Below, piece after piece: positions 58,034 to 64,000 of a stretch of 64,000 bases of DNA (position 1 is the first letter of the stretch; each line of letters opens with the position of its first letter). A program made the translations under genes and the position numbers. This DNA comes from Solirubrobacteraceae bacterium. Lineage in GTDB: Bacteria > Actinomycetota > Thermoleophilia > Solirubrobacterales > Solirubrobacteraceae. The stretch is taken from the NCBI GenBank assembly GCA_031177685.1, contig JAPSGI010000004.1, positions 124,001-188,000 of the forward strand, in the 5' to 3' direction. The notes beneath the pieces are model-generated. The model was not told where the DNA came from. It saw only the letters and a program-made list of their open reading frames with translations, and did not search any database.

Positions 58034-58444
58034 CTACGGGGCCACGCGGATGACGGACTGGATCGCGTCGAGCCCGCGGTCGAAGGACAGGATCGCGCCC
58101 ACCTCGGTGAGCTGGGCAGCGGCGACGAGGTATGCGTCCACGAAATGCAGCGTCGTCTCCTCGTAGACGCGCAGGGCGCCGAGTAGGAGCGCCTCGTCGA
58201 GGACCCGGATCGCCGGCAGGGCGAGCGCGGAGCGCATCACCTCGGCGATTCGCGCGCGCGGGATTTCGTAGAACGACTCCAGGACGAAGACGCATTCGGC
58301 GAAGACGAGGTCGGTCAGGAGGAGCTTGTCCGCCGCGGCGAGCGCCCGCGTCGCCTTCGCCGCGTGTGCCGGCGGATCGCCCGTGAGATGGCGAATGACG
58401 ACGTTCGTGTCCAGCAGCGCGGTCAGCGCCGCGCCTCGGCCCAT
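58034..58444 (-). CDS. PIN-domain ribonuclease toxin (VapC-like), AbrB-linked
   Basis: 136 aa from ATG 58444, overlapping the antitoxin by 22 bases. PIN acidic residues are in LLDTNVVIRHL, VFAECVFVL, HFVDAYLVA and LSFDRGLD. The longer frame to 58477 is open but lies inside the antitoxin gene. It probably cuts an RNA target. The partner antitoxin is of the AbrB/SpoVT type, unlike the ribbon-helix-helix partner of the other VapC in this window. Confidence 0.88.
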   Translation of the reverse strand: MGRGAALTALLDTNVVIRHLTGDPPAHAAKATRALAAADKLLLTDLVFAECVFVLESFYEIPRARIAEVMRSALALPAIRVLDEALLLGALRVYEETTLHFVDAYLVAAAQLTEVGAILSFDRGLDAIQSVIRVAP

Positions 58445-58671
58445 GCGCGGCGCGTGCTGGAGCGGACGGCGTCCCACGGGACGCCGCGCTTATGCGCGGG
58501 CGTCTCCACGGAGCCCGCGAGCTCGAGGAAGTCCGGCGTCTTGGCGAGAACGGCGGTCCGGTCTTCGACGCGAAAGAGGACGCGGTCGCCGGTACTGAGG
58601 TCCAGCGCATCGCGCACGGCCTTCGGCAGCGTGATTTGGCCCTTGGTAGTGAGCTTGGCGGAGAGCTGCAT
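58423..58671 (-). CDS. AbrB/SpoVT-type antitoxin (VapB-like)
   Basis: 82 aa. The swapped-hairpin AbrB domain occupies residues 1-48 (AKLTTKGQITLPKAVRDALDLSTGDRV), followed by a toxin-binding tail (ETPAHKRGVPWDAVRSSTRRAW). ATG 58671 stands 8 bases after a TATAGT box, so the transcript is nearly leaderless, although AAGGA lies in that gap. A perfect inverted repeat covers the promoter. Confidence 0.85.
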   Translation of the reverse strand: MQLSAKLTTKGQITLPKAVRDALDLSTGDRVLFRVEDRTAVLAKTPDFLELAGSVETPAHKRGVPWDAVRSSTRRAWAEARR

Positions 58672-58785: not shown

Positions 58786-58858
58786 GGGGCTATAGCTCAG
58801 TTGGGAGAGCGCCTGGATCGCACCCAGGAGGTCGGGGGTTCGAGTCCCCCTAGCTCCA
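58786..58858 (+). tRNA. tRNA-Ala (anticodon CGC)
   Basis: A 73-base cloverleaf. The acceptor GGGGCTA pairs with TAGCTCC, with discriminator A and no encoded CCA. D arm GCTCAGTTGGGAGAGC; anticodon stem CCTGG/CCAGG with loop ATCGCAC, anticodon CGC (Ala); T arm GGGGG-TTCGAGT-CCCCC. Toxin-antitoxin modules lie on both sides. Confidence 0.95.
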
Positions 58859-59152
58859 TTCGTCGTTTCTCCCGTAGACATGGGGGATGCGGCGTGCCTC
58901 TCCCCTCCGCGCCCGACGCTGGTTTGGGCGGGGCACGTACGAGACGCGTACGGAAGCCTCTCGGACGCCGAGCTGTTACGCGTACCGCTCGCCTGAAGGT
59001 GGGAGCTCTACAGCGGTGCTCTGAGCGGCTGGCTCTGAGCGTCCTGTCCCGCTGCGATCATCCGGTGATGTCTCGGTCGAGCCTTGCAGCATGAAGACAG
59101 GCTCCGCCGCTGAGCAAGCTCGGCCGCCAGCCGTGGGCCACAATCCGGCACC
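58859..59152. other. Intergenic region between tRNA-Ala and darT
   Basis: 294 bases without a convincing gene. It holds a repeated CGTACG palindrome (around 58937-58953) and a CACAAT element near the darT start that could be a weak -10 box. No copy of the tRNA 3' end was found that would mark an integration site. Confidence 0.4.
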
Positions 59153-59746
59153 ATGGATCGCGCTGAGCTTCGCGAGCTCCACTACATCACCCACATCGAC
59201 AACGTCCCGTCCTGTCTCCAGCGGGGCGTCCTCTGCCACAACCAGGCCCGGAGGATCGACCACGTCGATGTCTCGATGCGCGAGGTTCAGGACATCCGGC
59301 GAGGCAAGCGCCTGCCGAATGGGGACCTTCTACACGATTACGCGAACGTTTATTTCCAAGCCCGGAATCCCATGTTGTATCGCCTCCGGAATCGTGTGCA
59401 CGAGCTTGTGGTCTTGCGAATCGATCCAGCCATCGTCGATCTCCCGGGAGCCGTCATCGCGGACGGCAATGCCGCGGTCGGCTTCACGGCCTTCGAACCG
59501 GCTCCAGACGGGTTGCGGATAGTGGACAAGGGGCGCACATACGCTCGACGCTGGACGCACCAGGACACCATGGAATACCGCCGCCGAAAGGCGGCCTCCT
59601 GCGCTGAGGTCCTGGTGCCAGGCTCAATCGACTCGGGCTACATCACCGGGGCGTTCGTAGGATCCGGCCAAGCGCTGCGACGGTTCCGGGCGCTCGGCGT
59701 CGCCTTGAGGGTCCGCCGCAACCCTCGACTCTTCTTCCTTGTGTGA
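59153..59746 (+). CDS. darT: DarT-type DNA ADP-ribosyltransferase toxin (DUF4433)
   Basis: 197 aa. ELHYITHIDNVPSCLQRGVL at the start, the core LLHDYANVYFQARNPMLYRL and the C-terminal CAEVLVPGSI with the likely catalytic glutamate match DarT (ssDNA thymidine ADP-ribosyltransferase), an ARTD-related toxin. DarT modifies thymidine in DNA and stops replication; some homologues defend against phages. The gene has lower GC and more varied codons than its surroundings. The next gene is the antitoxin, starting within the stop codon. Confidence 0.9.
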   Translation: MDRAELRELHYITHIDNVPSCLQRGVLCHNQARRIDHVDVSMREVQDIRRGKRLPNGDLLHDYANVYFQARNPMLYRLRNRVHELVVLRIDPAIVDLPGAVIADGNAAVGFTAFEPAPDGLRIVDKGRTYARRWTHQDTMEYRRRKAASCAEVLVPGSIDSGYITGAFVGSGQALRRFRALGVALRVRRNPRLFFLV

Positions 59747-60972
59747 CTATGACCCAGTCCGCCAACCAAACCCCGAAGCGTTCAGTGGAGATCGCCGTAG
59801 GCGATCTCCTCGCCGCCGATGCGCAGACGCTCGTCAACACGGTCAACACCGTGGGGATCATGGGCAAGGGCATCGCGCTTCAGTTCAAGAACCGCTTCCC
59901 TGACATGTTCGAGGACTACCGCGCAAGATGCGACCGCGGCGAGGTGAAGCTCGGGCAGCCGTACCTCTATCGCCGCCTCATTGCGCCACACATTCTGAAC
60001 TTCCCGACCAAGGAACATTGGCGATCGGTGTCGCGTCTCGACGACATCCTCCACGGCCTCGACTACCTGGAGGAGCACTATCAGGAGTGGGACATCACGT
60101 CACTCGCGGTACCGCCGCTGGGGTGCGGGCAGGGTGGACTCGAATGGCGTGTCGTAGGCCCCACCCTCTATCAGCGGCTCGCGCGGCTCGACATTCCCGT
60201 CACGCTGTTTGCACCGTTCGGAACACCGCACGAAGAGCTCAAGCCGACGTACCTCAACCGGCCGCTGGATGACATCGGAACTGCGGACGACCCAGAGCAC
60301 TTCCTCCCATCGCGTATTGCCCCAGGGTGGGTGGTGCTGGTATCCATTCTTGACCGGCTTGAGCGGAACCCGTATCACCGGCCAGTCGGTCGCACCAGTT
60401 TCCAGAAGCTCGCGTACTTCGCGACTGATAAGGGCGTCCCTACAGGTCTCAAGTTCGTCCGTGGCAGCTATGGACCCTACGCCGACGAACTCAAGAAGGT
60501 CCAGACGGCGTTGGTCAATAACGGGCTCATCCGCGAGGAGCGTCGCGGCCAGATGATTGCGTACAAGGTCGGCCCAACCTACGAGGCGGCACGACGCGCA
60601 TACGAAGCGGAGCTGGAGGGTTGGGACGAGGAAGCCGACGACCTCGCCCAGCTCATGACTCGGATGCGGACTAAGGACGCCGAGATTGCCGCGACCGTTC
60701 ATTTCGTAGCGGGTGAGTTTGCGTCGGAGACGGGGAAGCTCCCAACCGAGCGGCAGGTACTTGACGCCGTGATGGAGTGGAAGCGTCGACGAACGCCTCA
60801 GTGGGATGCTCAGGAGGTCGCGGCAACCGTTCGGCACCTTGCGCTGCGTGGCTGGCTTCGTGTTCGTGCGAGCAGAGACCTGCCACTCGATGAGCTTCGC
60901 GAGCTGGGTGTTCGTTCGCCCGAAACGCCCACGCGGCATCCGAAGGCTGCGTCGAACCCGTCGCTGTTCTAA
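59743..60972 (+). CDS. darG: DarG-type macrodomain antitoxin
   Basis: 409 aa from GTG 59743 (GTGA overlap); ATG 59749 is an alternative. Residues 12-165 are a macrodomain: GDLLAADAQTLVNTVNTVGIMGKGIALQFK and LAVPPLGCGQGGLEW are the ADP-ribose-binding loops of the DarG/TARG type, which remove the DNA mark. Residues 190-400 form the C-terminal region (VGRTSFQKLAYFAT, FVRGSYGPYADELKK) found in full-length DarG proteins and thought to bind and inhibit DarT. The module looks intact. Confidence 0.92.
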   Translation: MTMTQSANQTPKRSVEIAVGDLLAADAQTLVNTVNTVGIMGKGIALQFKNRFPDMFEDYRARCDRGEVKLGQPYLYRRLIAPHILNFPTKEHWRSVSRLDDILHGLDYLEEHYQEWDITSLAVPPLGCGQGGLEWRVVGPTLYQRLARLDIPVTLFAPFGTPHEELKPTYLNRPLDDIGTADDPEHFLPSRIAPGWVVLVSILDRLERNPYHRPVGRTSFQKLAYFATDKGVPTGLKFVRGSYGPYADELKKVQTALVNNGLIREERRGQMIAYKVGPTYEAARRAYEAELEGWDEEADDLAQLMTRMRTKDAEIAATVHFVAGEFASETGKLPTERQVLDAVMEWKRRRTPQWDAQEVAATVRHLALRGWLRVRASRDLPLDELRELGVRSPETPTRHPKAASNPSLF

Positions 60973-61005
60973 GACGCTGGCCAAGTCGTAATCGAGCAGT
61001 TCGAC

Positions 61006-61533
61006 CTACGACCCCCGTCGAGCGCCGGAGCCGACCAAGCGGGGCTCGGCGCGGATCACGGAGACCGGCGCCAGCGGCTCGTCAGGTTGGCCGTCGGAGT
61101 AGCTGTCGATGATCCACCATCCTCCGAACCACAGGACGGTTCCGAGGCCGGCGACCACTAGGACCGCGACAGCTAGCCGTCTGATCGTGCGAGTGCGCAT
61201 CGCTAGCCACCGGTGAGCTCGAGACCTCGGCCGGGGGCGCCTACGAGCGCGACTGCCTAGCGCGCGGCCGGCGCTCTGCCTCCGCTCAGTTCGGCCCGCC
61301 CAGTCTCGCTTACCCTTCGCGGCGATGTCGGCGACGGAGAGGCCGAGGCCGTCGCACACACGCAGCAGGGTGAACCAGGTGGGGTTCGTCTCGTCGCGCT
61401 CGATCGCGCCCATGTGGTTGCGCTGGATGTCGATCTTGCCGGCGAATGTCTCCTGGCTCATCCCCATTTGCTCGCGCAGCTGGCGCACGGCATCGCCGAG
61501 TGCCTTGCACGCCTCGATCGGCGACAAGTCCAT
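61006..61533 (-). CDS. XRE-type HTH protein with C-terminal membrane segment
   Basis: 175 aa. Residues 8-70 are a Cro/CI helix-turn-helix (REQMGMSQETFAGKIDIQRNHMGAIERDETNPTW). A 40-residue Arg-rich stretch of unusual composition follows, then RRLAVAVLVVAGLGTVLWFGGWWII, a single membrane helix, and a short outside tail. It may be a membrane-tethered regulator, or two small genes (a ~75-aa regulator and a ~63-aa membrane protein from ATG 61198) joined by loss of a stop. The Arg-rich linker favours the second view. Confidence 0.65.
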   Translation of the reverse strand: MDLSPIEACKALGDAVRQLREQMGMSQETFAGKIDIQRNHMGAIERDETNPTWFTLLRVCDGLGLSVADIAAKGKRDWAGRTERRQSAGRALGSRARRRPRPRSRAHRWLAMRTRTIRRLAVAVLVVAGLGTVLWFGGWWIIDSYSDGQPDEPLAPVSVIRAEPRLVGSGARRGS

Positions 61534-61669
61534 GCCCGAAGCCTTATAAGTAGCCCTCCTCTAGACGGCCGAGCCAGGAAGCGACTGGCGAACTGCTCTT
61601 CCCGCCTTGCAAGGAACCGGCCTGTGCCGGACATGTACTCAGTCCAGGCGAATGATTCGGAGGGCTGAC

Positions 61670-62110
61670 ATGGACACGCGCAACGACACGACCCCCGCCG
61701 GGCACGGGATTCTGGTGGCCGCGAGCGCGGGCCTGCTGCTGGCGGTGGGACTGCACGGGATCGATCACGCGCTGCAGGACCGCGGGGTCGGGGGGCTGAG
61801 TACCGAGGTCTTCATCGGTGGGACGGTCAACGCGGTCCTGGCGGTCCTGGCCTTCGCGCTGGCGCTGCGTGGCCACCGTCACGCGCCGGTGATCGCCGCC
61901 GGCGTCGGTGCGTACCTGGCGATCGGCGTGACCGCGGCCCACTTTGCGCCGCGCTGGGGGGCGGTCAGCGACCCGTACTCCGAGCTGAGCCTCGGCTTCT
62001 TGTCGTGGGCGGCCGCCGGCTTCGAGGTGGCGTGCGCGGCGGCACTCGCCGCCGTCGGCGTGGCTGTGCTGCGCCGGCGCCAGACCACTGGCCGCCTGGC
62101 GTCGCGCTGA
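61670..62110 (+). CDS. Membrane protein, paralogue of the anti-sigma-linked membrane domain
   Basis: 146 aa from ATG 61670, with GGAGGG five bases upstream. Four helices. The sequence shares HGIDHALQDRGVGGLSTEV and HFAPRWGAVSDPYSELSLG with the protein encoded two genes downstream (HGLDHAFIQERGVDALSAEV, HFVGHWGEFSDPYAAADLG). Conserved His, Asp, Arg and Trp residues at helix ends suggest a ligand or metal site. It ends 10 bases before an ECF sigma gene. Confidence 0.72.
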   Translation: MDTRNDTTPAGHGILVAASAGLLLAVGLHGIDHALQDRGVGGLSTEVFIGGTVNAVLAVLAFALALRGHRHAPVIAAGVGAYLAIGVTAAHFAPRWGAVSDPYSELSLGFLSWAAAGFEVACAAALAAVGVAVLRRRQTTGRLASR

Positions 62111-62120
62111 CAATCCCGGG

Positions 62121-62612
62121 GTGCGTGCGCGCGGCGACGCCGAGCTGGAGGCCCTGTGGCATGAGTGGCACCGCCACGTGCTCGCCTACGCGCTGCGCCG
62201 CGCCGATCCCGCGACGGCCGAGGACGTGGTGGCCGAGACGTTCGCGATCGCGTGGCGGCGGCTGGCGGAAATTCCCGAGCGGCCGCTGCCCTGGCTGCTG
62301 GGCGTGGCGCGCCGCGTGCTCGCCAATCACCGTCGCGGCGAGCGCCGGCGCCGTGCCCTGGTCGACCGCCTGCCCGTCCCCGCCGCGTCCGAGGATGCGC
62401 CGGAGGGGCACGTGCTCAGCGCGCTGGCCTCGCTGCGCGAGCGCGACCGCGAGGCGCTGCTCCTGCACGCGTGGGAGGGACTCGACCACTCGGAGGCAGG
62501 GACCGTGATGGGCTGCTCGGCCGCGACGTTCGCCGTCCGACTGCACCGTGCGCGCCGGCGGTTCGAGCGCGAGCTCGCGCGGATCGACACCGCCGCGGAG
62601 GTGGCGCGGTGA
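62121..62612 (+). CDS. ECF-type RNA polymerase sigma factor
   Basis: 163 aa with region 2 (HVLAYALRRADPATAEDVVAETFAIAWRRL) and region 4 (LRERDREALLLHAWEGLDHSEAGTVMGCSAATFAVRLHRARRRF) and a short linker. It directs RNA polymerase to a specific promoter set. GTG 62121 follows a GACAAT-type box by 6 bases. The gene's end overlaps the next start (GTGA), as is usual for sigma/anti-sigma pairs. Confidence 0.92.
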   Translation: MRARGDAELEALWHEWHRHVLAYALRRADPATAEDVVAETFAIAWRRLAEIPERPLPWLLGVARRVLANHRRGERRRRALVDRLPVPAASEDAPEGHVLSALASLRERDREALLLHAWEGLDHSEAGTVMGCSAATFAVRLHRARRRFERELARIDTAAEVAR

Positions 62613-63127
62613 GCGGCGATCCGATCACGCGCCTGCGCGCCGCCGACCCGCTGCGGGGCGAGCTGCCCCCGGCGCTTCGGCAGATGCCGGCGCGCCTGCG
62701 CGCGGCGCCGCAGGAGTCCGTGCGCGCGCGGACGGCGCTCACCATCGCCAACGTGCTGCTCCTGGCCGCCGTCCTCTTCCACGGCCTCGACCACGCGTTC
62801 ATCCAGGAGCGCGGCGTCGACGCGCTCAGCGCCGAGGTCCTGATCAGCGGGTTCGCGATCACCGCCGCCGCCGCCCTCTCCCTCGCCGCCACGCTGCGGC
62901 GCGACCGCCGCGCGGCGCTCTACGCCGTGCTGTCGGGCCCCTACATCGCCGCCGCGGTCGTCGCCGGGCACTTCGTCGGACACTGGGGCGAGTTCAGCGA
63001 CCCCTACGCGGCCGCGGACCTCGGCACGATCTCCTACGCCGGAGCAATCGCGGTCGTCGTCGCCGGCGTGGCGGTGGGCGCGGCCGGGGCGCTGGCCGGT
63101 GTGAGATCGCGGCCGGCGCCTTCCTGA
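62609..63127 (+). CDS. Putative membrane anti-sigma factor with novel four-helix domain
   Basis: 172 aa from GTG 62609. The first ~40 residues (DPITRLRAADPLRGELPPALRQ) resemble the N-terminal tail that follows ECF sigma genes in actinobacteria. Residues 45-170 form a four-helix membrane domain that matches the protein at 61670. No zinc-binding HxxxCxxC motif is visible, so it is not a classical ZAS anti-sigma factor. It probably controls the adjacent sigma factor and may sense a signal with the shared His/Asp sites. Confidence 0.72.
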   Translation: MSGDPITRLRAADPLRGELPPALRQMPARLRAAPQESVRARTALTIANVLLLAAVLFHGLDHAFIQERGVDALSAEVLISGFAITAAAALSLAATLRRDRRAALYAVLSGPYIAAAVVAGHFVGHWGEFSDPYAAADLGTISYAGAIAVVVAGVAVGAAGALAGVRSRPAPS

Positions 63128-63140
63128 GGCCGCGACGTTC

Positions 63141-63848
63141 CTACAGGACCGGGATCAGCAGTCCCCGGCCGGACAGACCCACGCTGCGGTCGAGCGTCAG
63201 CAGGTAGGCGTCGCGCAGCGCGGGCTGGCGGCGCAGGCGCCACAGCATCTCCGCGTGCAGCCACGCCGCATCGCGGGCGCGCTCGATCTTCCACATCGCG
63301 ATGACGTCGTCCAGGCGGCCGAGCGCCTCGTCGGCGATGGCGCCGATGCCGCGGAGGAAGCGGCGCTTGACGCGGTCCTCCACCCGCTCGAGCAGATCGT
63401 TGACGCGCAGGTAGTCGCGGTGCTGCGGCGTCTCGCGCCGCGGCGACTCTCCGCGCGCCCGGTGCACCTCGACGAGCGCGACGGCGAGGTCGTGGTTGAT
63501 GTGGGCGTTCATTCCCGACAGCGCGAACTGGATCGCCGCCACGCGCGGATGCCGACGCGCCTCGAACAGCGGCTCCCAGCAGCGCGGCGGGCGCCGGCCC
63601 GCCAGGTCGTCGTCGACGGCGGCGAAGTACAGCGCGGCGAAGGCGACGTCCAGCGCGGCGAGGAACTCGCCGTCCTCGAAGGTCTCGCCCGCCAGCTCGT
63701 CGCGCACGGCGAGCGTCACCGCGAGGTAGAGCTCGTTGAAGGCCGCCACTCCGTCGGCCGGCGGCAGCTCGCGCGCGATCGCGCGCATGCGCGCGATGAC
63801 GGATTCGATCTCGTCTACCGCCGGCGGAGCAGGGCGACGGGGTGGCAT
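63141..63848 (-). CDS. DUF5995-family protein
   Basis: 235 aa from ATG 63848. Helical throughout, with IARMRAIARELPPADGVAAFNELYLAVT, the central GMNAHINHDLAVAL (His/Asn/Asp residues) and WKIERARDAAWLHAE. The NxHxNHD-type motif may bind metal. Function unknown. The start lies 8 bases after TATCGT on the minus strand. Confidence 0.82.
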   Translation of the reverse strand: MPPRRPAPPAVDEIESVIARMRAIARELPPADGVAAFNELYLAVTLAVRDELAGETFEDGEFLAALDVAFAALYFAAVDDDLAGRRPPRCWEPLFEARRHPRVAAIQFALSGMNAHINHDLAVALVEVHRARGESPRRETPQHRDYLRVNDLLERVEDRVKRRFLRGIGAIADEALGRLDDVIAMWKIERARDAAWLHAEMLWRLRRQPALRDAYLLTLDRSVGLSGRGLLIPVL

Positions 63849-63856
63849 GGCGCAGA

Positions 63857-63866
63857 ACGATAGGTT
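63857..63866. promoter_or_regulatory. Overlapping divergent -10 boxes (TATCGT minus, TAGGTT plus)
   Basis: ACGATAGGTT contains TATCGT on the minus strand (8 bases before ATG 63848) and TAGGTT on the plus strand (7 bases before ATG 63874); the boxes share one TA. The whole divergent region is 25 bases. Confidence 0.5.
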
Positions 63867-63873
63867 CCCGTGC

Positions 63874-64000
63874 ATGACCTGTCCCAAGTGCCAGGGCGAG
63901 ATGCGCAGCTACGAGCGCAACGGAGTCCACGTCGACCAGTGCACGGACTGCCGTGGCCTGTTCCTCGACCGCGGCGAGCTGGAGCGGCTGGTGGAGGCGG
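63874..64000 (+). CDS. TFIIB-type zinc-ribbon protein, N-terminal part (cut by window edge)
   Basis: The 42 visible residues contain two CxxC pairs (CPKC and CTDC) spaced as in small zf-TFIIB proteins, with the typical DQCTDCRGLFLDRGELERL. It probably binds zinc. The rest lies outside the window. The start follows TAGGTT by 7 bases. Confidence 0.85.
   Translation, partial: MTCPKCQGEMRSYERNGVHVDQCTDCRGLFLDRGELERLVEA

What the first reader, a model, noticed from the sequence alone, without database searches (positions are those of the whole stretch)
61670..63127. ECF sigma factor flanked by two copies of an undescribed four-helix membrane domain
Seen: the gene before the sigma factor and the gene after it encode membrane proteins sharing HG(I/L)DHA, RGV-xx-LSxEV and HF-xxx-WG-xx-SDPY blocks. 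Only the second has the N-terminal tail usual for sigma-linked regulators, and it is coupled to sigma by a GTGA overlap; no ZAS zinc motif is visible. Inference: a sensor and anti-sigma pair built from one duplicated domain, perhaps binding heme or metal through the conserved histidines.
Basis: partly seen in the sequence, partly recalled or inferred. Interest (0 to 1): 0.7.

Follow-up and report, generated by a model that had tools for sequence, protein, structure and literature searches.

The report
Anti-sigma factor with swapped membrane sensor
A bacterial gene switch (an ECF sigma factor) is followed by its probable membrane inhibitor, which keeps the usual short sigma-binding tail but carries an uncharacterised four-helix membrane domain instead of the usual sensor; a second free-standing copy of that domain is encoded just before the sigma gene.

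Summary
P0001 (61670-62110), an ECF sigma gene (62121-62612) and P0003 (62609-63127) are tightly packed, and sigma and P0003 overlap by GTGA. P0001 and P0003 share a four-helix membrane domain (45% identity, E 4e-19) that matches no curated Pfam, NCBIfam or PADLOC family.

The domain is not a sigma-linked family: none of 15 other loci has it beside a sigma gene. What makes P0003 a probable anti-sigma factor is its first 35 residues. They match the N-terminal tail of the proteins encoded directly after the closest sigma relatives (E 1.6e-5, best of 1571 N-termini). In nearly all of about 45 related loci that slot holds a protein with one helix and an external domain, mostly with this tail. Only here does it hold tail plus four helices.

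Best reading: a known kind of ECF sigma/anti-sigma pair whose sensor was replaced by this domain, with P0001 as the unfused relative that acts as co-sensor or target. Three invariant histidines and an aspartate are predicted to sit at the outer face. A metal site there is a guess, and heme is unsupported. I found the fusion in one genome only. Polytopic anti-sigma factors (CarR, NrsF) are known but unrelated by sequence.

The parts
61670..62110 (+). P0001: free-standing four-helix membrane protein (146 aa), HxxDH domain, no sigma-binding tail; first gene of the probable operon
   Evidence: GGAGGG at 61659-61664 upstream as a ribosome-binding site
62121..62612 (+). P0002: ECF sigma factor (163 aa, GTG start), regions 2 and 4 present
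   Evidence: closest relatives 50-58% identical in the same family
62609..63127 (+). P0003: putative anti-sigma factor (172 aa): tail plus four-helix HxxDH domain
62609..62612 (+). GTGA overlap of sigma stop and P0003 start; about 24 of some 45 related sigma genes have the same 4-nt overlap with the next gene
62609..62737 (+). N-terminal cytoplasmic tail of P0003 (residues 1-43), LRAADP motif, predicted short helices at residues 5-11 and 21-24
   Evidence: tail model E 1.6e-5, best of 1571 N-termini; structure
62738..63106 (+). Four-helix membrane domain of P0003 (residues 44-166); model helices 28-67, 75-96, 102-122, 136-166; H58 (62780-62782), D61-H62 (62789-62794), H121 (62969-62971)
61613..61641 (+). 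Weak lead only: GGAACC, 17-nt gap, TACTCA upstream of P0001, resembling an ECF-type -35 element; not conserved in relatives

Best explanation
P0001, sigma and P0003 form one small operon encoding a membrane-signalling ECF sigma circuit. P0003 is the anti-sigma factor: its 35-43 residue N-terminal tail binds and holds sigma at the inner face of the membrane. Its four-helix HxxDH domain replaces the single helix plus external domain that the related anti-sigma-like proteins carry, and acts as the sensor. A cluster of invariant residues (H58, D61, H62, H121, W126, S130 in P0003 numbering), predicted at the outer end of helices 1 and 3, binds the signal, perhaps a metal ion or a small ligand. Binding shifts the helix bundle and frees the tail from sigma. 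P0001, the unfused relative, either pairs with P0003 in the membrane or is the protein whose level or ligand the circuit controls. Shown: gene order, overlap, homology of the two domains, homology of the tail, slot conservation, invariant residues. Inferred: topology, sigma binding, sensing, release mechanism, role of P0001.
For: Tail model built without P0003, from the proteins downstream of related sigma genes: P0003 scores 21.2 bits, E 1.6e-5, and ranks first of 1571 N-termini from 400 kb of the same genome; the next scores 9.9 bits, E 0.067. The longer tail-plus-helix model puts P0003 above all 2000 shuffles, though one unrelated basic-plus-helix N-terminus of 1345 scores higher, so the helix part is a confounder. 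In loci not used to build the model, 11 of 19 downstream proteins also match the tail at E <= 1e-3. Of about 45 related sigma loci nearly all have a membrane protein directly downstream, almost all with one predicted helix; P0003 alone has four. Some downstream proteins weakly match NCBI's CU044_5270 family (best E 6e-18, below its cut-off). Topology: the helix 2-3 loop and the C-terminus are positively charged and the helix 3-4 loop is negative across 14 homologues, which fits N-in/C-in. AlphaFold gives four confident helices for both proteins (pLDDT mostly 90+ in the helices). H29, D32, H33, H91, W96 and S100 (P0001 numbering) are invariant in 14 of 14 homologues.
Against: The fusion was found in one genome only; the one same-genus genome held (72% complete) lacks it. 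No other homologue of the domain neighbours a sigma gene. No solved structure resembles the tail, so sigma binding by this kind of tail rests on gene linkage alone. The models used only five sequences and I could not measure distances between the conserved residues.
Confidence: 0.65

Rival explanations
1. Sensor and anti-sigma are separate: P0001 is the real sensor and P0003 the anti-sigma; the signal passes between two like domains in the membrane.
For: P0001 is encoded first and 10 bp ahead of sigma; both copies keep all three histidines; they group together in the tree.
Against: P0003 keeps the same conserved site, so it could sense alone; none of the related sigma loci fetched carries the domain; nothing shows a heterodimer.
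Confidence: 0.25
2. The domain is a membrane enzyme or metal site of unknown chemistry; P0001 keeps that function as the circuit's target, and P0003 is a copy turned into a regulator.
For: P0001 keeps all 14 nearly invariant residues, P0003 has lost two (P94 to G, W113 to Y); P0003 has the longer branch (1.26 against 0.49); other homologues are free-standing in varied gene settings. Three histidines, one aspartate and a serine recall the residue set of CREST membrane hydrolases (PMC3146951).
Against: No enzyme activity or fold match; CREST proteins have seven helices and a different motif order; agreement with the family consensus differs only mildly (43 against 36 of 72 columns).
Confidence: 0.25
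3. P0003 is not an anti-sigma factor; the two membrane proteins merely flank sigma in a chance arrangement.
For: The domain has no sigma linkage elsewhere.
Against: Tail homology, GTGA coupling and occupation of the conserved downstream slot.
Confidence: 0.1

Closest known systems
CU044_5270-like proteins downstream of related ECF sigma genes (NCBIfam NF038083)
   Same: Position directly after sigma, often 4-nt overlap, N-terminal tail of the LRxADP type
   Different: They have one helix and a large external domain; P0003 has no match to the family and four helices
CarR and NrsF (DUF1109), six-helix membrane anti-sigma factors (PMC8156234, PMC3511200)
   Same: Polytopic membrane inhibitor encoded next to its ECF sigma factor; NrsF has a 25-residue N-terminal segment
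   Different: Six helices, conserved cysteines in NrsF, largely proteobacterial; no sequence match to P0003
[quoted passage not shown]
   Same: Short two-helix cytoplasmic segment wrapping around sigma would fit the length of the P0003 tail; sigma matches CnrH among other ECFs
   Different: No sequence match of the tail to CnrY or any solved structure; CnrY works with a separate periplasmic sensor, CnrX (own knowledge)
CREST superfamily of membrane hydrolases (PMC3146951)
   Same: Three histidines, one aspartate, one serine near one membrane face
   Different: Seven helices and SxxxH / D / HxxxH order; no sign of homology in any test here

Membership tests
ECF sigma factor | sigma-70 regions 2 and 4 | tested here: met
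   Pfam Sigma70_r2 E 1.2e-8 and Sigma70_r4_2 E 1.1e-13, above cut-offs; NCBIfam sigma70-ECF above cut-off
Anti-sigma-type partner found after related sigma genes | encoded directly after sigma with the conserved N-terminal tail | tested here: met
Anti-sigma-type partner found after related sigma genes | one helix plus external domain (usual architecture, not a requirement for function) | tested here: not met
   P0003 has four predicted helices and no external domain
Anti-sigma factor (function) | binds and inhibits its sigma factor | not testable with these tools
   needs an interaction or reporter assay
Class I anti-sigma, ZAS type | zinc-binding motif with cysteines | tested here: not met
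   P0003 contains no cysteine
DUF1109 / NrsF / CarR | match to the family profile; six helices | tested here: not met
   no Pfam match for P0003 at E <= 1 except MerC at 0.45; four helices
CU044_5270 (NF038083) | match above cut-off | tested here: not met
CREST superfamily | seven helices with SxxxH, D, HxxxH in order | tested here: not met
   four helices, HxxDH in helix 1, H in helix 3
Class II anti-sigma (CnrY-like) | two-helix segment embracing sigma | tested here: inconclusive
   two short predicted helices at low confidence; no sequence match

The most novel reading that the evidence does not exclude
The regulator was built from the thing it regulates: a copy of the free-standing HxxDH membrane protein was fused to a sigma-binding tail, so that the anti-sigma factor reads the same ligand or metal that P0001 handles. 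This would be a new sensor type for ECF systems and a snapshot of how anti-sigma factors gain new sensors.
Probability: 0.3. Interest if true: 0.6.

Novelty: new variant of a known kind. Interest (0 to 1): 0.45.

Why it matters
Anti-sigma factors decide what a bacterium's ECF sigma factors respond to. Here the sigma-binding tail is kept while the sensor is exchanged for an uncharacterised polytopic domain, next to an unfused copy of that domain. This shows sensor exchange in one locus and gives a first functional handle (a sigma-coupled reporter) on a family of small membrane proteins that has no curated name or function.

Tried and rejected
Known family for the domain: Pfam, NCBIfam, PADLOC, all without a match at cut-off; the weak names that appeared (DUF7937, MerC, SecE, DUF3017, an antiporter subunit) are far below cut-off. 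Solved structures by sequence: nothing credible. Fold search: only generic four-helix bundles, none at E <= 0.001; VIA Z of 10-13 is at the level stated for unrelated helical bundles. Plasmid records: none. A scan of genome contigs found only three loci because the pattern was narrow. Promoter conservation upstream of related sigma genes: no shared element. Literature on CU044_5270 or on ECF systems in this class: no paper held. The full ECF classification paper was not held, so I did not assign an ECF group number.

Full report
Observation. The window holds three packed genes on the + strand: P0001 (61670-62110, 146 aa), an ECF sigma factor P0002 (62121-62612, 163 aa) and P0003 (62609-63127, 172 aa). 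P0001 ends 10 bp before sigma; sigma and P0003 share GTGA. Third-position GC is 0.91-0.95 in all three, as expected of real genes here. P0001 and P0003 align at 45% identity over 100 residues, E 4e-19. These are the only two copies found in the genome.

The domain. No curated Pfam, NCBIfam or PADLOC family matches either protein at its cut-off, nor does any Pfam or NCBIfam family match any of 14 family members. Homologues are sparse: 9 of 101 relatives (three of them weak), 8 of 396 genomes sampled across the phylum, 9 of 399 in the class (two of them weak) and 10 of 232 in the order (one of them weak); these sets overlap and each includes the window's own genome. Ten positions are invariant in 14 sequences, among them H29, D32, H33, H91, W96 and S100 in P0001 numbering. 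Charge distribution over the family supports N-in/C-in with the helix 3-4 loop outside. AlphaFold gives four confident helices for both proteins, which places the HxxDH motif at the outer end of helix 1 and the third histidine at the outer end of helix 3. Co-location on one face is inferred from helix direction; no coordinates were available to measure distances.

Neighbourhood test. Fifteen other loci with about 5 kb on each side, where the contig allowed, were scanned with a profile of sigma factors. None has a sigma gene beside the domain; one has a sigma gene about 4 kb away, overlapping a following gene of its own. Neighbours elsewhere include TetR regulators, and purF-like and recQ-like genes in one genus (naming of these neighbours is by eye from the translations). 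The domain is therefore not a sigma-linked family.

The tail. The nearest sigma relatives (50-58% identity) are followed by membrane proteins that begin with a short tail of the form LLxRLRAADP. A profile of the first 26 residues of 20 such proteins, P0003 not included, was run against 1570 other N-termini from 400 kb of the same genome. P0003 ranks first, E 1.6e-5, the next at 0.067. Loci not used for the model confirm the tail as a feature of this slot (11 of 19 at E <= 1e-3). About 24 of some 45 related loci have the same 4-nt overlap. Almost all of these proteins have a single predicted helix, two show a second hydrophobic stretch, and P0003 alone has four. Among the domain homologues only P0003 has the tail. 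Hence P0003 is the anti-sigma-type partner of this sigma lineage with its sensor part replaced. That these tails bind sigma is inferred from linkage; none has a match among solved structures.

Origin. In a tree of 16 domain sequences P0001 and P0003 fall together with one long-branched row (91/92); P0003 has the longer branch (1.26 against 0.49) and has lost two of 14 nearly invariant residues. This fits, but does not prove, a local copy of P0001 that was fused to the tail.

Mechanism. Most likely P0003 holds sigma through its tail, and ligand binding at the outer histidine/aspartate cluster changes the bundle and releases sigma. Polytopic anti-sigma factors exist: CarR and NrsF have six helices, and NrsF is linked to the response to chromium and cadmium, with two conserved cysteines needed for full repression (PMC8156234, PMC3511200). 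P0003 does not match that family. A metal at the conserved site is a guess based on residue type; the residue set resembles that of CREST hydrolases (PMC3146951), but helix number and order differ. Heme has no support. P0001 may be co-sensor or target.

Limits. One genome carries the fusion. The structure models rest on five sequences. No binding, sensing or regulation was tested. A GGAACC element upstream of P0001 is a weak lead that relatives do not share.

Verdict. Real, coherent and modestly new: a new variant of a known kind (ECF sigma with membrane anti-sigma), with an uncharacterised sensor domain.

Noticed in passing
59153-60972 (+): DarT (ssDNA ADP-ribosyltransferase, Pfam E 1e-38) followed by a macro-domain protein with the two genes overlapping: a DarTG-like toxin-antitoxin pair.
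   Followed up: partly
58034-58671 (-): PIN-domain protein and MazE/AbrB-type antitoxin, a VapBC-like pair.
   Followed up: partly
58786-61000: A tRNA-Ala (58786-58858) followed by about 2 kb with GC down to 0.62-0.64 against 0.70-0.77 around it; looks like a small inserted island holding the DarTG-like pair.
   Followed up: no
61006-61533 (-): Divergent helix-turn-helix protein with a C-terminal hydrophobic stretch, next to the operon; could be a membrane-linked regulator.
   Followed up: no
63141-63887 (-): DUF5995 protein (E 2e-68) directly downstream on the opposite strand.
   Followed up: no
L070, L071: The free-standing domain lies between a purF-like gene and a recQ-like helicase gene in two genomes of one genus; a third genome of that genus (L084) also carries the domain. 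A conserved position with no sigma gene.
   Followed up: partly
L079:4928-5278 (-): A homologue in another family of the phylum that lacks the WGxxSDPY stretch and the third histidine altogether, a possible natural deletion variant.
   Followed up: no
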